Assembly: GCA_025360105.1 (NCBI GenBank)
Contig: JANYCT010000051.1
Coordinates: 124,001-188,000, forward strand
Direction of reading: 5' to 3'
Source of the DNA: Actinomycetes bacterium
GTDB lineage: Bacteria; Actinomycetota; Acidimicrobiia; Acidimicrobiales; Ilumatobacteraceae
Length of the DNA: 64,000 nucleotides
The position numbers and the translations under genes are program-made. Shown here one piece after another: positions 9,055 to 17,840 of the stretch; the first letter of the stretch is position 1; each line of letters begins with the position of its first letter. The notes beneath the pieces were generated by a model. That model ran no database searches and was not told the DNA's origin. It was given only the letters and a program-made list of their open reading frames with translations.

Positions 9055-10461
9055 CTACGGGTTCGGCATCCAGTTGCCATGGAAGCCCGCGGGCACGCGC
9101 CGTGGTATGTGCACACGCGCCACGGGCCCGGCGGCCAGATCGTGGCCGTCAAGAATGCACAGATCGGTGGTGGCGCTGGCCTTGTCGGTGGCGAACACCA
9201 TCAGCCAGCCGTCGTCTTCGGCCGACCCGGTGGGGTCTGCGGCAAACACTGCCTCGCCAATGCTCGTGCCCTCGCCGAACGCGTAGGTGAGATCGCTACC
9301 GGTCTGCAGGTCGTAGCGCACGATGCCGTTGAAGCCGATGGTCATCGGTCCGTCGAGCGTTGTGGAGGCGTAGCCGTAACGATGGGGGAGGCCGAGTAGA
9401 TCGTCGTGCAAGCGCGGGAAGTCGCTGCGCAAATCGTTCACCATCTGCTCGTGCACCGTTCCGGTGACGAGGTTCATCGTCCACTTCGTGAGGCCCACCC
9501 CCTCGAGCGTGCCGAGATCGGCGATGTCGCTCTCGCCTGCCTCGAAGTCGAGGTCGATACTGGGCATCCGACAGCCGTAGGCCACGATCTCGTCGCCCTG
9601 CTCCCACGCGTTGAGGAAGTGGAACACGAAGCATGCGTCGATGCTGAACCACTTCACGTCGGCGTTGGTGCCGTGGCGGGGCATCACACCGATACGCGCG
9701 CCGAGGTCGGGCTGCCACATCGACTCGCCGGCCATCGTCGCGGCGATCACTGCGGGAAAGTCGAAGAAGATGCTGTAGTTGCGAGTGGTGAGGAAGTCGT
9801 GCATCATCACGCCGCGCGGCAGTTCGATATCGGCCGTGTGGGTGAGCACGCCGTTGCTGTCGGCGACGTGATGGCGTAGGAACGGCGGGCCTGCCACGGG
9901 GTCGTAACCGAAGAAGATCAGCTCACCGGTTTCTGGGCACCACTTCGGATGCGCGGTCATTGCGCCGCTGAGCCGACCGTCGTAATCGAACAGGCCACGT
10001 GTCTCGAGATCGGCGGTGATCTCGACAGGGAACCCACCCTCCCAGAGTGCGAGATATCGGCCGGCGTGGCGCACGATGTTGGTGTTGGCAGCGTTCTTGA
10101 AGATGCCGCACTCGGCCATCAGTTCCTCGGGCGGGAACGCGAAGTTGAGGATGCCACCGAACAGCGAATGTCCGACCGTGCGCTCGTGCCCGAGCCCGGG
10201 CGTGGCCACCCAACGGTTTCGGTAGCGTGCCGTGCCACCGTCGAGGGACAGGGCGTGCACCATGCCGTCGCCATCGAACCAGTGGTAGCGGCCCGATGGC
10301 GTGAATTGGGGATTCGCACCGTTGCGCATGTAGACGCCGCTGAGCGCGGCAGGTATTTGCCCGGTGATGCGCAGATCGCGAGAATCGATCTCGTCGTATA
10401 CGGGCGCGTACTCGCCCTGCAGGAATGGGCTGATCTCAGGGCGGTCTTCCAGAGCGGTCAT
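9055..10461 (-). CDS. Carotenoid oxygenase family protein
   Basis: A 468-residue seven-bladed propeller dioxygenase of the RPE65/CCD family. The N-terminal segment IPAALSGVYMRNGANPQF and WFDGDGMVH are diagnostic. Four histidines expected to hold iron are visible in TAHPKWCPETGE, MMHDFLTTRNY, FHFLNAWEQGDE and the C-terminal GFHGNW. Such enzymes cleave carotenoids, stilbenes or lignin-type compounds; the substrate cannot be assigned. ATG 10461 is preceded by TACCGT with a 6-nt gap, and the upstream 46 codons in frame are low-complexity, so I dropped them. Confidence 0.92.
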   Translation of the reverse strand: MTALEDRPEISPFLQGEYAPVYDEIDSRDLRITGQIPAALSGVYMRNGANPQFTPSGRYHWFDGDGMVHALSLDGGTARYRNRWVATPGLGHERTVGHSLFGGILNFAFPPEELMAECGIFKNAANTNIVRHAGRYLALWEGGFPVEITADLETRGLFDYDGRLSGAMTAHPKWCPETGELIFFGYDPVAGPPFLRHHVADSNGVLTHTADIELPRGVMMHDFLTTRNYSIFFDFPAVIAATMAGESMWQPDLGARIGVMPRHGTNADVKWFSIDACFVFHFLNAWEQGDEIVAYGCRMPSIDLDFEAGESDIADLGTLEGVGLTKWTMNLVTGTVHEQMVNDLRSDFPRLHDDLLGLPHRYGYASTTLDGPMTIGFNGIVRYDLQTGSDLTYAFGEGTSIGEAVFAADPTGSAEDDGWLMVFATDKASATTDLCILDGHDLAAGPVARVHIPRRVPAGFHGNWMPNP

Positions 10462-10467
10462 GGCTGA

Positions 10468-10473
10468 ACGGTA
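10468..10473 (-). promoter_or_regulatory. -10 box TACCGT of the carotenoid oxygenase gene
   Basis: TACCGT ends 6 nt before ATG 10461 on the minus strand, another leaderless arrangement that fixes the start. Confidence 0.55.
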
Positions 10474-10522
10474 GCCCGCAGTGCGGCGTCGCGGTGACAA
10501 GCAGGTGCTCAGCCGCGCCTGT

Positions 10523-10984
10523 TCAGGATTGTTCGGCTGCTGAGGCGAGGTTGGCGAGGGTGGTGACCATGCCGGCACGGTTGTGTTCGCTGCGGTCATC
10601 GACTCCGCTCAGCGGCTTACCCATCTTGGTGACCAGCCAGCCGCGCCGATCGGTCCACGTCTCGGTGATCGTGCAAGCGTCGCCGTCGCCCGCCTCGATC
10701 GCGTATGACCAACGCGCCACCTTGATGGGACCCACGTTCACATCGAACACGAAGCTGCGGCCGGGCTCGCATGCCGACACCGTGCAGACGGTGCTCCACT
10801 TCTTCTTGCCGTTCTCATTGTTGCCGGCGAACTTCGCGCCTGTGGCGGGTCCGGTGGCCCCCTTGGTCCAGGCGCACGACGTGGTCTCCGGCGACCACTC
10901 GCCCATCCGGGTGACATCGCTGATCAGGCTCCACACATGCCCGGGCGATGCACTGATGGCTTGGCTCACGGAGATCTCTGTCAT
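10523..10984 (-). CDS. SRPBCC family protein
   Basis: A 153-residue START-like protein of the polyketide cyclase/dehydrase type. It opens with the usual strand-helix pattern (ISVSQAISASPGHVWSLISDVTRMGEWSPET), followed by an antiparallel sheet and a long C-terminal helix (NRAGMVTTLANLASAAEQ). These proteins bind hydrophobic ligands in a deep cavity. The ligand is unknown, although the neighbouring carotenoid oxygenase and acyl-CoA dehydrogenase suggest lipid or terpenoid metabolism. It lies 61 nt upstream of the carotenoid oxygenase start on the same strand. Confidence 0.85.
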   Translation of the reverse strand: MTEISVSQAISASPGHVWSLISDVTRMGEWSPETTSCAWTKGATGPATGAKFAGNNENGKKKWSTVCTVSACEPGRSFVFDVNVGPIKVARWSYAIEAGDGDACTITETWTDRRGWLVTKMGKPLSGVDDRSEHNRAGMVTTLANLASAAEQS

Positions 10985-11301: not shown

Positions 11302-11403
11302 GTCGATCCTTGAGGTGACCGAATCCGACCCTGACCGGCGTGAGGCGAGCCGCTATCGTCGTTGGGGAAATACGGTCAGGGCAGTTGGCGAACAGGGGAT
11401 TGT

Positions 11404-13239
11404 GTGAGTGAGGTGGTCGATGTGGCGCAGGCGCAGCCTGCCCCCGAGCGCACACCATGGCGGTTGCTCACCGGACTCCTCGCCGAGCAGAAACGCGGTC
11501 TTATCGCCGGCGTCGTCGTGGGCGTACTCTGGGCAGCTGCGAAGGTGTCGATCCCGCGACTCATCCGCAACGGCATCGACCATGGCATCGCTGGCAATGA
11601 ATCGCTGCTGAAGTGGTCGCTCATCATCGGCGGTGTCGGCGTGATGGCAGGCATCTTCACCGCGTGGCGTCGATGGATTGCCTTCCGCGAGAGTCGCATC
11701 ACCGAGCAGCGTTTGCGCGAACGACTCTTCAACCACATCATCCGGCTCAACGTGGGCTATCACGATCATGCGCAGACCGGCCAGTTGATGAGCCGCGCAT
11801 CCAGCGACCTGCAGCAGTTGCAAGGCTTCGTCGTGATGATCCCGCTCACCATCAGCAACCTGTTCCAGGTGCTTGCGATCCTTATCTTGTTGCTCACCAG
11901 CGACCCGCTCTTGGCGGTCGTGGCGCTCGCACCGTTGCCGTTGGTGAACCTGTCAGCGAGGCGATTCAGCAGCAAGATCCATCCGGCGGTGATGGAGGTG
12001 CAGAACCGCCAGGCCGCGCTCGCCACCGTTGTGGAGGAGTCGATCTCGGGCGTTCGCGTCGTCAAGGGCTTCGGTGCCGAGGCCGTGCAGGCGCGCAAGC
12101 TGCTCGCTGAGGCCGATCAAATTCGGGCCGTCTCGTTGGACGCCGCGAAGATCCGCAGCCGCTTCCTTCCAGCAATCGACATTCTTCCCTCGCTGGGGCT
12201 CATTGGCGTGCTGGCGATCGGCGGCCACCGCGTGCTCCGCGGCGAGATGACCGTTGGTCAACTCGTGGAGTTCAACGCAAGCGTGATGCTGTTGATCTGG
12301 CCGATGCGCAACATTGGTCAGACACTCGCAACCGGCCAACGCGCCGCGGTTGCGCTGCAACGTGTGCAGAAGGTGTTGTCCACCGAGTCCACCGTCACCG
12401 ATTCGGCGCATCCGATTTCGTTGCCGCAGACCCCGCCCCTTGGCGCCGTGATGCTGCGCGACGTTCGTTTCGGTTACGACCCTGATCGGCCGGTGCTCGA
12501 TGGGTTCAATGTCGCCATCCCGGCGGGCACCTCGGTCGCCATCGTTGGTGGCACAGGAAGCGGTAAGTCCACGATCACCCGATTGATGTTGCGCTTCTAC
12601 GACGTGCAGAGCGGCAGCATCGAGCTCGATGGCTGCGATCTGCGCAACCTGCGCCTGAACGAGCTACGCCAAGCTGTCGGGGTGGTGTTCGAGGACACAC
12701 TGTTGTTCCACGACACCGTCGCCGCGAACATCGCGTTCTCCGATCCCGATGCAGGTATGGACCTCATCGTGCATGCAGCGCGCCTCGCCGGTGCCGATGA
12801 GTTCATCGAGCATCTCCCCGAGGGTTACGACACCATGCTCGGCGAGCGCGGCTACTCGCTCAGCGGCGGACAGCGTCAGCGCATCGCGATCGCCCGGGCG
12901 ATTCTGGCCGATCCGCGCCTGCTGATTCTTGATGACGCCACCTCTGCAGTCGACCCTTCGAAAGAGCACGAGATCCGCGAGGCCATGGCAACGGTGATGC
13001 GCGATCGCACCACCATCGTCATCGCCCATCGGCCCGGCACGATCGCACTCGCCGACACTGTGCTGTTGCTCGATGAGGGTCGTGTAGCAGCGCAGGGAAC
13101 GCACGACGAACTGCTCAACGGCAATGCTCGCTACCGCGAGGTACTTGCGTCGTTCACCGACGACCAGCAAGCCGACGACGTCGAGGTCGATGCCGAGCTC
13201 ATCGACGCAGCCGTGCCCGAGCCGATCGGCGGTGATTGA
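11404..13239 (+). CDS. ABC exporter half-transporter, ATP-binding/permease (first of a pair)
   Basis: A 611-residue protein of the MsbA/MdlB exporter type. Six membrane segments span roughly residues 30-310, with the ATPase domain behind them: Walker A GGTGSGKST at 382-390, signature LSGGQRQR from 486, and Walker B LLILDDATSAVD. That last run has Asp where most ABC ATPases have the catalytic Glu (LDEATS), so this half probably has the degenerate site of a heterodimer. GTG 11404 is chosen because AGGGG lies 7 nt upstream; the TTG at 11362 has no support. The second half-transporter starts at the stop. Confidence 0.92.
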   Translation: MSEVVDVAQAQPAPERTPWRLLTGLLAEQKRGLIAGVVVGVLWAAAKVSIPRLIRNGIDHGIAGNESLLKWSLIIGGVGVMAGIFTAWRRWIAFRESRITEQRLRERLFNHIIRLNVGYHDHAQTGQLMSRASSDLQQLQGFVVMIPLTISNLFQVLAILILLLTSDPLLAVVALAPLPLVNLSARRFSSKIHPAVMEVQNRQAALATVVEESISGVRVVKGFGAEAVQARKLLAEADQIRAVSLDAAKIRSRFLPAIDILPSLGLIGVLAIGGHRVLRGEMTVGQLVEFNASVMLLIWPMRNIGQTLATGQRAAVALQRVQKVLSTESTVTDSAHPISLPQTPPLGAVMLRDVRFGYDPDRPVLDGFNVAIPAGTSVAIVGGTGSGKSTITRLMLRFYDVQSGSIELDGCDLRNLRLNELRQAVGVVFEDTLLFHDTVAANIAFSDPDAGMDLIVHAARLAGADEFIEHLPEGYDTMLGERGYSLSGGQRQRIAIARAILADPRLLILDDATSAVDPSKEHEIREAMATVMRDRTTIVIAHRPGTIALADTVLLLDEGRVAAQGTHDELLNGNARYREVLASFTDDQQADDVEVDAELIDAAVPEPIGGD

Positions 13240-13241
13240 TC

Positions 13242-15041
13242 ATGTGGTCGATGAGCGCTGTCTCCGAGGACGACAAGCTCAATCGCGACACCGCGAAGAA
13301 GGTGATCCGCCGCTCGTGGCAGTTCGCCCGGCCTTATCGACGCACCACCCAGGCCGCGCTGGTGCTCGTCACGTTCTGGACCGCTACCACGCTCGCCGGC
13401 CCGGTGATCGTCAAGTACGGCATCGACTCCGGGCTCGGCAAGAACGACGGGCATGCGCTGAACATGGCTGTAGCGGCATACATCGCCGCAACCATTGCTG
13501 CGTACTTCATCGCGCGACTGCAGTTCGTGTACATCAACCGCGCGGGCGAAGGTTTCCTGCGCGACCTTCGGGTGCGTGTGTTCGACCACTTGCAGAGCCA
13601 AGGGCTGTCGTTCTTCGACCGCGAAAAGACTGGCGTGCTCGTGTCGCGCATGACGGCAGATATCGAATCGATGGGCGAGCTCATCCAATGGGGTTTGCTG
13701 CAGTTCGTTTCGGCTGCGTTGCTCGTGGTGATGTCGTTGGCATTGCTGTTCTTTCTGAGTTGGGAGCTCACCCTGCTGGCGATGGTGGTGTTCCCCGTCA
13801 TCGTTGTGGCGTCGATCCGCTTCCAACGCGACTCGAACCGGGTGTATCTCACCGTGCGCGAGCGCATCGGGAACAACCTCAGCGCGCTGCAGGAGGGCAT
13901 CAGCGGTGTCCGTGTGATTCAGGCGTTCGCGCGTGAGGACGAGCAATCACGCCGCTTCACTGCCAGCAACGACGCACTCTTCGACGCGCACATGGACAGC
14001 ATCAAGGTATCGATGTGGTACTTCGGTCTCGTCGAGTTCTGCGGCATCTTCGCCACCGCCTCGATGGTGGGCGTCGGCGGCTACCTCGTGCACCGGGGAT
14101 CAGTGAGCCTCGGTGTCGTCACCGCCTTCGTGTTGCTGCTGGGCAGCCTGTTCGACCCCGTGCAGCAGCTATCGCAGCTGTACAACACCGTGCAGTCAGC
14201 GGGCGCTTCGCTGCAGAAGCTCTACGGCATCCTCGACACGCCACCCGAAGTTGGCGAAGCCGTCAACGCGCTTGACCTTCCGCACGAGGGCGAAGTTGCC
14301 GTGCGCGATGTCGACTTCGAATATGTGCCCGGTCGGCCGGTGCTGAACCATGTGTCGCTCACGGTGGGCATCGGCGAACGACTGGCGCTCGTGGGTCCTA
14401 CGGGTGCCGGCAAGAGCACGTTGGCGAAGTTGATGGCGCGTCTGTACGACCCCACCAGCGGAACGGTGTCGTTCGCCGGCATCGACCTGCGCGACGCAAC
14501 ACTGCACTCGCTGCGCCAGCGCGTTGTCGTTGTACCGCAGGAGGGTTTCCTGTTCAGCGGCACCATCCGCGACAACCTTGCGATCGCGCGGCCGAGCGCA
14601 ACTGATGACGAGATCATTGCCTCGCTTGCCAGTATCGGCGTGCTCGAACACTTCCTCGCTTTCCCCGAAGGGCTCGATACCGAAGTACGCGAACGCGGCT
14701 CTCGATTGTCGGCGGGCGAGCGCCAACTCGTCGCGTTGGCACGCGCCGCGTTGGTAGACCCTGCGGTGCTCGTGCTCGACGAAGCGACGTCGAACCTCGA
14801 CCCCGGCACTGAAGCCGAGGTAGAGCACGCGCTCGAATCGCTGATGGCCGACCGCACGGTGATCGTGGTTGCGCACCGACTGTCCACGGTCCGCCGGGCA
14901 GACCGCATCGCAGTGGTGGACCACGGCGGACTGCTCGAGTTGGGCTCGCACGACGAACTGGTCGCGCTCGGCGGCAAGTACGCGGCCCTGTCGGCGGCAT
15001 GGGAACGTAACCAGGGAGCAAGCCCAGGCCGTCCTGCGTGA
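13242..15041 (+). CDS. ABC exporter half-transporter, ATP-binding/permease (second of a pair)
   Basis: A 599-residue partner of the preceding gene. Membrane domain roughly residues 20-320; ATPase domain with Walker A GPTGAGKST at about 385, signature in the form LSAGERQ, and Walker B AVLVLDEATSNLDPG with the catalytic Glu. Canonical and degenerate halves together are typical of heterodimeric exporters of drugs, lipids or peptides. The start is not certain: TTG 13236 overlaps the upstream stop, ATG 13242 and ATG 13251 are better codons, and I use 13242. A palindromic repeat overlaps the 3' end. Confidence 0.92.
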   Translation: MWSMSAVSEDDKLNRDTAKKVIRRSWQFARPYRRTTQAALVLVTFWTATTLAGPVIVKYGIDSGLGKNDGHALNMAVAAYIAATIAAYFIARLQFVYINRAGEGFLRDLRVRVFDHLQSQGLSFFDREKTGVLVSRMTADIESMGELIQWGLLQFVSAALLVVMSLALLFFLSWELTLLAMVVFPVIVVASIRFQRDSNRVYLTVRERIGNNLSALQEGISGVRVIQAFAREDEQSRRFTASNDALFDAHMDSIKVSMWYFGLVEFCGIFATASMVGVGGYLVHRGSVSLGVVTAFVLLLGSLFDPVQQLSQLYNTVQSAGASLQKLYGILDTPPEVGEAVNALDLPHEGEVAVRDVDFEYVPGRPVLNHVSLTVGIGERLALVGPTGAGKSTLAKLMARLYDPTSGTVSFAGIDLRDATLHSLRQRVVVVPQEGFLFSGTIRDNLAIARPSATDDEIIASLASIGVLEHFLAFPEGLDTEVRERGSRLSAGERQLVALARAALVDPAVLVLDEATSNLDPGTEAEVEHALESLMADRTVIVVAHRLSTVRRADRIAVVDHGGLLELGSHDELVALGGKYAALSAAWERNQGASPGRPA

Positions 15042-15185: not shown

Positions 15186-17840
15186 ATGTCTGCGAACGGG
15201 TCAAGTGCTGGCGTGGATGCTCCGACACCGGATGTCGATGTCGATGTCGATGTCGATGTCGATGTCGATGTCGATGTCGATGTCGATGTGGTCGTCGTGG
15301 GTGCGGGCTTTGCCGGAATGTATCTGTTGCATCGCCTGCGCGGGCTCGGCATGTCGGCGCGTGTGATAGAAGCGGGCGACGATGTCGGTGGCACGTGGTA
15401 CTGGAACAGGTATCCCGGTGCACGCTGTGACATCCAGAGCATCGACTACTCGTACTCGTTCGATCCCGAACTCGAAGAGACCTGGACGTGGTCCGAGAAG
15501 TACGCACCGCAGCCCGAGATCCTGCGCTACGCGCAACACGTTGCCGACAAGCACGACCTGCGCCGCGATATCGAGTTCTCCACACGAGTCGACTCCGCAG
15601 CGTGGGACGACTCCGCACGCACGTGGCGCGTGCGGACCTCGCGTGGCGAGACTCTCGTCAGCCGATTCTTCGTCATGGCCACCGGTTGCCTGTCGATGCC
15701 CAAGGAGGTCGATATCGACGGAACCGACCGGTTCGCCGGCGACGTGTACTTCACCAGCCGCTGGCCGCACGAGGGCGTCGACTTCACCGGCAAGCGTGTC
15801 GCAGTCATCGGTACCGGGTCGTCGGCCATCCAGTCGATTCCCATCATCGCCGGCCAGGCCGCGCAGCTGACGGTGTTCCAGCGCACGCCGAACTTCTCGA
15901 TCCCCGCCAACAACGGTCCAGTGCCGGCGCACAAAGTGGCTGCGATGGCGCAAGGCCGCGAGCAGTATCGCGAGGCGGCACGCTGGTCGGGGAGCGGCGT
16001 CACCGTTGTGCGTAGCGAGGTGAGCGCGTTGTCGGTGAGCGACGACGAAAGGATCGCACGTTACGAAGAGGCGTGGCACACCGGCGGAATCATCGAGTTC
16101 CTCGGTACCTACATGGATCACCTCTCCAACCCGGAGGCAAATGAGTTGTTGGCGGAGTTCGTACGGAGCAAGATCCGTTCGATCGTGCACGATCCGCAGA
16201 CGGCCGAGACACTCTGCCCGACGACCTTTCCGATCGGCACGAAGCGGTTGTGTGTCGACTCGGGCTATTACGAGGCCTTCAATCGACCGAGCGTGCGTCT
16301 GATCGACCTGCGTTCGCGGCCGATCATCTCGATCACTGAGACGGGCGTGGATCTGCTTGACGAGTCGCTCGAGTTCGATGCGGTCGTATTCGCCACTGGC
16401 TTCGACGCCATGACTGGCGCGATCGTGAGCGTCGATATCGAGGGTCGCGATGGCATCACTCTGAAAGACGCCTGGGTTCATGGCCCCACCATGTACCTCG
16501 GTCTGATGGCTGTTGGTTTCCCGAACCTGTTCATGATCACCGGCCCGGGTAGTCCGTCGGTGCTGTCGAACATGTTGGTGTCGATCGAGCAGCACGTCGA
16601 TTGGATCTCCGATTGCGTGCAGCACCTTCGCTCGCAGGGGCTCGACACGATCGAACCCACCGACAAGGCGGTTGATGGATGGGTTCGGCACGTGAACGAC
16701 TTTGCCGCGATCACGCTCGTGTCGCGAGCGAACTCGTGGTACATGGGTGCCAACATCCCCGGCAAAGCGCGGGTGTTTCTGCCGTACCTCGGCGGGGTCG
16801 ATGGTTACCGCACGATCTGTAACGAGGTGGTAGCCAACGATTACGTCGGTTTCGCGCAGCGTGGTGCTGTCGGTACCCGGTGCAACGACAAGATCATCCG
16901 CCCGGTGCAACCCGATGTTGCGATCATGCTCGAGATGATGGCGGGCTTCGACCTGCCCGCGATGGACACGATGTCGGCCGTCGATGCGCGTGCGTTCTCG
17001 AATGCGATGTCGGCACAGCGGCCCAGCGGGCCCGATGTCGGTGAGATCGTCGATGGCGCCTTGCCCGGCGCAGGTGGGGATCTGAACTACCGCCTCTATC
17101 GCCCTGCGAGCCCTGGACCGCACCCTGTGGTGGTCTACTTCCACGGTGGTGGCTGGGTGTTGGGCGCGCACGATTCCGACGATCCGTTCTGCCGCGACAT
17201 GTGTGTTCGGTCCGGCGCCATGATTGTCTCGGTCGACTATCGCCACGCCCCTGAGGCGCGCTTTCCCGCTGCTGCCGACGACGCGTTCGCGGCAGTGCAG
17301 TGGATCGCCGAGAATGCAGCTGACCTTGGTGGTATTCCCGGCGGACTTGCCGTCGCCGGTTGGAGTGCTGGGGCGAATCTTGCTGCGGTGGTGTGCCAAC
17401 TTGCACGCGATGGGGGTGGTCCGCAGATCGTCGGTCAGCTTCTGCTCAACCCGGTCACCGACGCGTCGATGACCGAGGGCTCCTTCGTCGACAACGCTCA
17501 GGGCTACGTCCTGACAGCGTCGTTGATGCATTGGTTCTGGGATCTCTACCTCAGGCCAGACGATCACACGAACCCGTTGGCATCGCCATTGCGTGCCTCG
17601 ACTCTTGTTGGACTGCCACCCGCGCTCGTGGTTACCTGCGAGTTCGACCCGCTACGCGATCAGGGCGCCGCATACGCCGACGCGCTCGCTGGCGCCGGCG
17701 TGAGCGTTGGACACCTCGACTGCCTTGGCCATATCCACACCTCGCTGACGGCGGTCGACATGCTGCCCTCGGGCGCCCCTGTGCGAGCCGAGATGGGCGC
17801 GGCCCTTGCTGGCTTCTTCAGCGCGCTCAGCCTTGCGTGA
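15186..17840 (+). CDS. Baeyer-Villiger-type flavin monooxygenase fused to an HSL-family esterase
   Basis: An 884-residue two-domain protein. Residues 36-570 form a flavin monooxygenase: FAD motif GAGFAG at 39, [20 protein letters not shown] motif GTGSSAIQ, and [10 protein letters not shown]. The Baeyer-Villiger fingerprint FxGxxxHxxxWP reads [12 protein letters not shown] (from residue 183), so the conserved His is Phe189. Residues 590-884 form an alpha/beta hydrolase: oxyanion motif HGGGW at 653, nucleophile elbow GWSAG with Ser727, then an Asp in EFDPLRDQ and a His in LGHIHTS. A ketone-to-ester-to-acid-plus-alcohol cascade in one chain is the natural reading. ATG 15186 has AGGAG 6 nt upstream. 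Residues 16-35 are ten Asp-Val dipeptides encoded by a hexanucleotide tract. Confidence 0.88.
15231..15290 (+). repeat. (GATGTC)n hexanucleotide tract, ten units
   Basis: Nine GATGTC units plus a final GATGTG stand in frame in the monooxygenase-esterase gene and encode (Asp-Val)10 just before the first beta-strand of the FAD fold. Gain or loss of units would change length but never frame. Confidence 0.95.

What the first reader, a model, noticed from the sequence alone, without database searches (positions are those of the whole stretch)
15186..17840. Baeyer-Villiger monooxygenase fused to an esterase, with Phe in place of the fingerprint His
Ketone-oxidising monooxygenases and the esterases that split their ester products are usually separate neighbouring genes. 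Here both are in one 884-residue chain with complete FAD, NADPH and Ser-Asp-His sites. The fingerprint FxGxxxHxxxWP reads [12 protein letters not shown], so the His linked to BV selectivity is Phe189, which may alter coupling or specificity.
Basis: partly seen in the sequence, partly recalled or inferred. Interest (0 to 1): 0.6.

Follow-up and report, generated by a model that had tools for sequence, protein, structure and literature searches.

The report
Ketone-oxidising enzyme fused to esterase
This bacterial gene joins an enzyme that turns ketones into esters to one that splits esters, so a single protein could cut a ketone in two; the same joining appears to have happened several times in bacteria, and the odd residue is usual for this branch.

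Summary
In detail: window 15186-17840 (+) is one 884-residue frame, a type I BVMO-like half joined by an ordered linker to an HSL-type esterase half, other catalytic motifs intact, with Phe189 at the fingerprint His (PAMO His173). The reading 'unusual fusion with an odd Phe' is only partly supported. Of 227 related BVMO rows (254 loci), 76 are fused. On a 60-row tree the fused state needs five changes; one fused group has the reversed order. In the window's clade (Actinomycetota, Pseudomonadota) 60 of 60 rows lack His (45 F, 7 V, 3 L, 3 Y, 2 S); unfused relatives keep it in 132 of 151. So Phe is a clade trait at a relaxed site. A natural His-to-Gln BVMO is active in print, so Phe alone is no argument against Baeyer-Villiger activity. 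Best explanation: a self-contained ketone-to-ester-to-alcohol-plus-acid enzyme; activity, substrate and hand-over are untested. His loss is commoner among fused proteins, but independent contrasts are too few for significance. Searches of an open-access library found no report of a natural BVMO-esterase fusion. New variant of a known kind, moderate interest.

The parts
15186..17840 (+). fused BVMO-esterase gene, 884 aa
15231..15289 (+). perfect hexanucleotide array GATGTC x9.8, encodes (DV)n running into the first strand of the FAD Rossmann fold
   Evidence: no DV run of three or more in the other 59 clade-A rows
15273..16865 (+). type I BVMO-like half, residues 30-560
15300..15317 (+). FAD dinucleotide-binding motif GAGFAG (39-44)
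15387..15431 (+). second BVMO motif [15 protein letters not shown] (68-82)
   Evidence: motif as given in PMC4498894
15732..15767 (+). fingerprint [12 protein letters not shown] (183-194); Phe189 codon 15750-15752 in place of His
15810..15827 (+). NADPH dinucleotide-binding motif GTGSSA (209-214)
16242..16247 (+). Lys353-Arg354, opposite PAMO Lys336-Arg337 (PAMO numbering recalled and offset)
   Evidence: present in 60 of 60 clade-A rows
16851..16910 (+). inter-domain linker (about residues 556-575); predicted ordered, strands 556-560 and 563-566; conserved pattern and nearly constant length in clade A
16899..17831 (+). HSL-type alpha/beta-hydrolase half, residues 572-882
17142..17153 (+). oxyanion-hole motif HGGG (653-656)
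17358..17372 (+). nucleophile elbow GWSAG (725-729), Ser727
17646..17648 (+). catalytic Asp821
17736..17738 (+). catalytic His851

Best explanation
A bifunctional, probably degradative enzyme. The first half binds FAD and NADPH and inserts oxygen next to a ketone carbonyl (Baeyer-Villiger oxidation); the second half hydrolyses the resulting ester with its Ser-Asp-His triad, so one chain turns a ketone into an alcohol plus an acid. Shown by sequence: both catalytic sets intact, one frame, a conserved linker predicted to be ordered, both halves under purifying selection, and repeated joining of the same two enzyme types. Inferred: that both halves are active, that the BVMO product is the esterase substrate, and that Phe189 is tolerated because the fingerprint His is a domain-coupling residue, not a chemical one, whose role has relaxed in this clade. 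The substrate is unknown; likeness to steroid and phenylacetone monooxygenases suggests open-chain (methyl or aryl) ketones, as a lead only.
For: One 884-aa frame with both catalytic sets. AlphaFold model mean pLDDT 87.3, pTM 0.82; both folds matched, Est8 at Z 48.1 and PAMO structures at Z 45-47. Linker blocks 551-570 at pLDDT 93-95; 52 of 57 clade-A sequences fit one linker pattern of nearly constant length. Median dN/dS 0.14 and 0.19. The fused state needs five changes on a careful 60-row tree, forced by well-supported branches, with one change in 0% of 200 bootstrap trees; one group has the order esterase-BVMO. The esterase tree gives matching separate fused groups. 26 of 151 unfused BVMO rows have a like esterase within 1.2 kb on the same strand. 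D82, K353, R354 in 60 of 60 clade-A rows; Ser-Asp-His in 57 of 57 clade-A esterase rows long enough to test. A natural H173Q BVMO is active and stereoselective (PMC3762062).
Against: No activity, substrate or expression data. The fingerprint His is replaced, and the same paper reports that His mutants of CHMO and HAPMO are impaired or inactive. Residues 516-518 and 520-528, around the conserved Trp518, have pLDDT under 50. No coordinates or inter-domain error were available, so no channel or contact between the two active sites was shown. The neighbourhood names no pathway: of 8 window neighbour proteins searched against 75 other fused loci, only an acyl-CoA dehydrogenase matched, in one locus. 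5 of 57 clade-A sequences did not fit the linker pattern.
Confidence: 0.75

Rival explanations
1. The BVMO half has lost Baeyer-Villiger chemistry and works as an NADPH oxidase or heteroatom (S/N) oxygenase; the esterase is a passenger or acts on other esters.
For: Fingerprint His absent in 60 of 60 clade-A rows; His mutants of CHMO and HAPMO are impaired (stated in PMC3762062).
Against: D82, K353 and R354 are kept in 60 of 60 and dN/dS is low; a natural Gln variant makes lactones; repeated joining to esterases is hard to explain unless an ester is made (inference).
Confidence: 0.15
2. The fusion is a regulatory or expression convenience (fixed 1:1 dosage) with no catalytic hand-over between halves. 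This is compatible with the best explanation's chemistry.
For: Unfused neighbours exist in both gene orders (13 upstream, 13 downstream of 151 rows), so joining may simply fix an operon; no channel could be shown.
Against: The clade-A linker is ordered in the model and conserved, more than a passive tether seems to need (inference).
Confidence: 0.35
3. His loss is causally linked to fusion: the esterase or linker takes over the control of the FAD/NADP domain movement that the His serves.
For: Non-His in 71 of 76 fused against 19 of 151 unfused rows; three of five fused groups lack or mostly lack His: A 0 His of 60, B 2 of 9, D 0 of 4.
Against: Bacillota fusions (3 of 3) and the divergent L183 fusion keep His; two group-B rows have it; the His state changes 18 times on the 166-row quick tree against 4 changes of the fused state, and the independent-pairs test has only 4 pairs, median p 0.5.
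Confidence: 0.15
4. The single frame is an assembly or annotation artefact joining two genes.
For: A genome of the window's own family (L061/L184) carries a close unfused pair, open frames 22 nt apart, besides a fused copy (L017).
Against: The same single frame appears in many unrelated assemblies, including named isolates of Mycobacterium, Pseudonocardia and Bradyrhizobium.
Confidence: 0.01

Closest known systems
Steroid monooxygenase STMO (PDB 4ap3, 4aos) and phenylacetone monooxygenase PAMO (1w4x)
   Same: Same fold over residues 30-560 at about 50% identity
   Different: They are solved as single-function chains; STMO has the fingerprint His (seen in the alignment); this has Phe and a C-terminal esterase
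Bacterial HSL / Abhydrolase_3 esterases: Est8 (4ypv), rPPE (4ob6-8), LipP1 (NF058653)
   Same: Same fold over 570-882 (Est8 and rPPE Z 47-48); HGGG, GxSxG and Ser-Asp-His present
   Different: Elbow GWSAG, where 21 of 23 unfused neighbour esterases have GDSAG; LipP1 score 340.2 is under its cut-off 350
BVMOAf1 of Aspergillus fumigatus (PMC3762062, abstract and passages seen)
   Same: 905-aa natural fusion with an N-terminal BVMO and a natural change of the fingerprint His (to Gln); active
   Different: Its C-terminal domain is reported as a putative polynucleotide synthase, not an esterase, and was deleted for the assays
Unfused BVMO plus esterase: subterminal alkane oxidation in Thalassolituus (PMC6304351, passages seen); gene pairs on Rhodococcus, Roseomonas and Natronorubrum plasmids
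   Same: The same two consecutive activities, ketone to ester to alcohol plus acid, are proposed
   Different: Two separate proteins

Membership tests
Type I Baeyer-Villiger monooxygenase | two Rossmann GxGxx[G/A] motifs on one chain (FAD and NADPH) | tested here: met
   GAGFAG 39-44 and GTGSSA 209-214
Type I Baeyer-Villiger monooxygenase | motif [A/G]GxWxxxx[F/Y]P[G/M]xxxD | tested here: met
   [15 protein letters not shown] 68-82; motif from PMC4498894
Type I Baeyer-Villiger monooxygenase | strict fingerprint FxGxxxHxxxW[P/D] | tested here: not met
   [12 protein letters not shown]: all fixed letters but the His. So it is described as BVMO-like with an atypical fingerprint, not as a strict member
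Type I Baeyer-Villiger monooxygenase | placement among known type I BVMOs by sequence and fold | tested here: met
   STMO E 1.7e-185, PAMO E 2.2e-180; PAMO structures Z 45-47
Type I Baeyer-Villiger monooxygenase | catalytic Arg (PAMO Arg337) | tested here: met
   R354, in 60 of 60 clade-A rows
Type I Baeyer-Villiger monooxygenase | conversion of a ketone to an ester or lactone | not testable with these tools
   needs purified protein
bacterial HSL-type esterase (Abhydrolase_3) | profile match over cut-off | tested here: met
   PF07859 238.9 bits against cut-off 25
bacterial HSL-type esterase (Abhydrolase_3) | HGGG and GxSxG with Ser-Asp-His | tested here: met
   HGGG 653-656, GWSAG 725-729, S727/D821/H851
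bacterial HSL-type esterase (Abhydrolase_3) | hydrolysis of carboxylic esters | not testable with these tools
   needs purified protein
LipP1 family hormone-sensitive lipase (NF058653) | score over curated cut-off 350 | tested here: not met
   340.2 bits
clade-A BVMO-esterase fusion (named here) | one chain BVMO-linker-esterase, GW/GY elbow, non-His fingerprint, inside the supported clade | tested here: met

The most novel reading that the evidence does not exclude
A widespread, unrecognised family of one-chain 'ketone-splitting' enzymes in which the esterase half and its ordered linker have become part of the BVMO's working cycle, making the textbook fingerprint His dispensable, so that motif-based BVMO mining has left the family out.
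Probability: 0.15. Interest if true: 0.65.

Novelty: new variant of a known kind. Interest (0 to 1): 0.4.

Why it matters
The same two enzymes appear to have been joined several times, once in the opposite order, which is natural evidence that they work in sequence and offers ready-made one-pot catalysts for cutting ketones. The family also shows that the fingerprint His used to define and mine BVMOs is not universal: PMC7570161 searched for BVMOs with FxGxxxHxxxW (passages seen) and PMC3762062 curated hits by this motif, allowing only F/Y or H/Q swaps (passages seen); such filters would miss this clade. It supplies natural F, V, L, Y, S, T, R and I variants for testing what that His does.

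Tried and rejected
Artefact joining of two genes: rejected, the frame recurs in many assemblies.

Uniqueness of the fusion: rejected.

A direct structural reason for Phe189 (contact with the esterase half): could not be tested, model coordinates were not in the script box and no inter-domain error was given.

A conserved pathway neighbourhood: 8 window neighbours against 75 other fused loci gave only one acyl-CoA dehydrogenase match, in L044. Only 21 of the 76 fused loci are longer than 9 kb and 8 are under 5 kb, and the longest-frame gene caller is unreliable in GC-rich DNA, so this is weak. In one search the families shared by three or more loci were the fused gene itself, frames that seem to overlap it, and a few among Bradyrhizobium-type loci. 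A carotenoid oxygenase (RPE65 family, PF03055) stands at 9055-10599 (-) and apocarotenoid ketones would be a tempting substrate, but the genome has five such matches and one search found none in the other fused loci; not pursued.

Statistical link between fusion and His loss: the independent-pairs test is underpowered (2 supported pairs, 4; p between 0.25 and 1). The per-row counts (71 of 76 against 19 of 151) are not independent observations. The careful search for the 166-row tree did not finish; the quick tree was used. Columns co-varying with His loss in unfused rows were weak; residue 191 (G to S, next but one to the site) ranked first.

Survey limits: BVMO hits under 280 bits or spanning under 380 query residues were dropped, identical domains merged, and an esterase was recognised only if it resembles the window's (over 50 bits), so other hydrolase families beside 'alone' BVMOs would be missed. 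L183 and the window genome's other BVMOs fell under that threshold and are not in the 227. further cut the 227 rows to 166 (short rows, and rows over 80% alike with the same letter and state). The 60 rows were chosen by me out of those 227 plus L183 and L002-L004. Genome counts are lower bounds: only 2 to 7 candidates a genome were scored, match lists and loci were capped, and esterase-first fusions show only where a locus was fetched. One search (396 genomes of the phylum) gave six full-length fusions, all in the window's family.

Literature: nine searches ran; six of them aimed at fusions or esterase pairs and none listed a natural BVMO-esterase fusion that I recognised; most listed papers were seen as listings only (for example PMC13101518 and PMC6165268, which hold 'naturally fused' or 'natural fusion', were not opened). 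The library holds open-access papers only, so this is no proof of absence in print. Riebel 2012, Malito 2004, Cheesman 2003 and Fraaije 2002 are known here only as cited in PMC3762062.

Full report
What is there. The frame 15186-17840 (+) encodes 884 residues without a stop. Pfam and PDB sequence searches place residues about 30-560 with FMO-like/Pyr_redox families and, best, with steroid monooxygenase (4ap3, E 1.7e-185) and PAMO (1w4x, E 2.2e-180), and residues about 573-880 with Abhydrolase_3 and HSL-type esterases such as Est8 (4ypv). NCBIfam's closest esterase model, LipP1, scores 340.2 bits, just under its cut-off of 350. An AlphaFold2 model from a 34-row alignment has mean pLDDT 87.3 and pTM 0.82; VIA-align matches residues 570-879 to Est8 (Z 48.1) and about 30-560 to PAMO structures (Z 45-47).

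The fusion is not rare. Matches spanning both halves in one stop-free frame were seen in 17 of 395 genomes sampled from the window's class, 9 of 297 from the Bradyrhizobium order, 1 of 199 from the Neobacillus order, 2 of 201 from the order of a Solirubrobacterales bacterium and 16 of 118 in the genus of Mycobacterium sp. ACS1612 (one of the 16, G1807, has a stop in the aligned range, but its fused frame L249 is open over 870 residues). In a sample of 240 alphaproteobacterial genomes 7 have a fusion, three in this order and four with the esterase first. Each count includes the genome around which the sample was drawn and is a lower bound. A collection scan brought further fused loci from Pseudonocardia, Mycobacterium, Actinomadura, Bradyrhizobium, Vineibacter and Bacillota, among others. 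In all, 254 loci gave 227 distinct BVMO rows: 72 BVMO-esterase, 4 esterase-BVMO, 26 with a like esterase within 1.2 kb on the same strand (13 upstream, 13 downstream), and 125 without one (10 of these with short flanks).

It arose more than once. On a careful 60-row maximum-likelihood tree with the fingerprint columns left out, the fused state needs five changes, all forced by well-supported branches; none of 200 bootstrap trees has one change. The rows were chosen by me. The groups are: A, the window's clade (Actinomycetota and Pseudomonadota, support 100/100); B, Actinomadura, Solirubrobacterales, a Bradyrhizobium plasmid and genomes drawn around Mycobacterium and Alphaproteobacteria (99/84); C, Bacillota (100/100), among unfused Bacillota rows; D, an alphaproteobacterial group with the esterase first (100/99); E, a single divergent fusion, L183, in a genome of the window's own family. 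On the larger 166-row quick tree, without L183, four changes are forced. Counting changes cannot by itself tell gains from losses, but the reversed order of D and the separate esterase lineages argue for gains: on the esterase tree A is a group of its own, B another, C lies beside Bacillota neighbour esterases, and D beside a Streptomyces upstream esterase, with three changes forced. The elbows agree: A GWSAG 54, GYSAG 2, GWSTG 1 of 57; B GESAG 8, GDSAG 1; C GDSAG 3; D GDSAG 4; unfused neighbours GDSAG 21 of 23.

The Phe. In clade A the fingerprint His position holds F in 45, V in 7, L in 3, Y in 3 and S in 2 of 60 rows, never H. Group B has R 3, T 2, H 2, S 1, L 1; C has H 3; D has V 2, I 2; L183 has H. 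Unfused rows have H in 132 of 151. So in clade A the site is relaxed, with a leaning to hydrophobic letters, while D82, K353 and R354 are kept in 60 of 60 rows. The nearest unfused relatives of clade A include F (L071) and Q (L061) as well as H (L032, L077), though their own grouping is weak, so the loss may precede or accompany the joining. Across the 166-row quick tree the His/non-His state needs 18 changes, against 4 for the fused state, so much of it happened without fusion, and the independent-pairs test has too few contrasts to say more. [quoted passage not shown] The Phe is therefore no proof of a non-BV enzyme, though its effect on rate or coupling is open.

How it most likely works. 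The BVMO half makes an ester, the esterase half splits it. Support beyond homology: in clade A the segment from the end of the BVMO fold to the esterase helix has a conserved pattern and nearly constant length (52 of 57 sequences fit a pattern that itself bounds the length, 5 did not), and the model shows it ordered, with two short strands. Both halves are under purifying selection: median dN/dS 0.14 and 0.19 over 25 pairs drawn from 140. No neighbour was found shared across the fused loci, which suits a self-contained enzyme but was tested weakly. Substrate, activity and hand-over between the sites are inferences.

Novelty. The library searches showed engineered BVMO fusions (PMC9354712, passages), unfused BVMO-esterase pathways (PMC6304351, passages) and one natural fungal BVMO fused to a different domain (PMC3762062), but no natural BVMO-esterase fusion that I recognised. 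The parts are known and the combination is a new variant of a known kind. It is worth a moderate score: not a one-off oddity, but a recurrent architecture, apparently little described, that strict motif-based mining would miss.

Noticed in passing
window 15231-15289; and G000 contig C26 52573-52614 (locus L012 1612-1653, - strand): The same perfect hexanucleotide array GATGTC, giving (DV)n just before a dinucleotide-binding glycine motif, stands in two different genes of this genome; the second gene was judged by its motif only. Of 60 clade-A rows only the window's has a DV run of three or more. In-frame slippage from a native DVDV codon pair is the likely cause (inference).
   Followed up: partly
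L087, L220, L221, L224: Alphaproteobacterial genes with the reversed order esterase-BVMO and Ile or Val at the fingerprint His.
   Followed up: yes
L183 1716-4250 (- strand): A second, divergent BVMO-esterase fusion in a genome (G027) of the window's family, of the FxGxxxHxxxWD type with His kept and GDSAG esterase.
   Followed up: partly
clade A, residues 725-729: Elbow GWSAG, GYSAG or GWSTG in 57 of 57 clade-A esterase rows where 21 of 23 unfused neighbour esterases have GDSAG; meaning unknown.
   Followed up: partly
L063 (titled Bifidobacterium breve MAG) and L031: L063 and L031 (a genome of the window's family) show the same frame length, score and fingerprint and merged as one BVMO domain, so the record title is probably wrong and MAG names are poor evidence of transfer.
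   Followed up: no
window 9055-10599 (-): Carotenoid oxygenase (RPE65 family), one of five matches in this genome.
   Followed up: partly
window 11362-15041 (+): Two adjacent ABC exporter half-transporters directly upstream of the fused gene; no match to either in 75 other fused loci, many with short flanks.
   Followed up: partly
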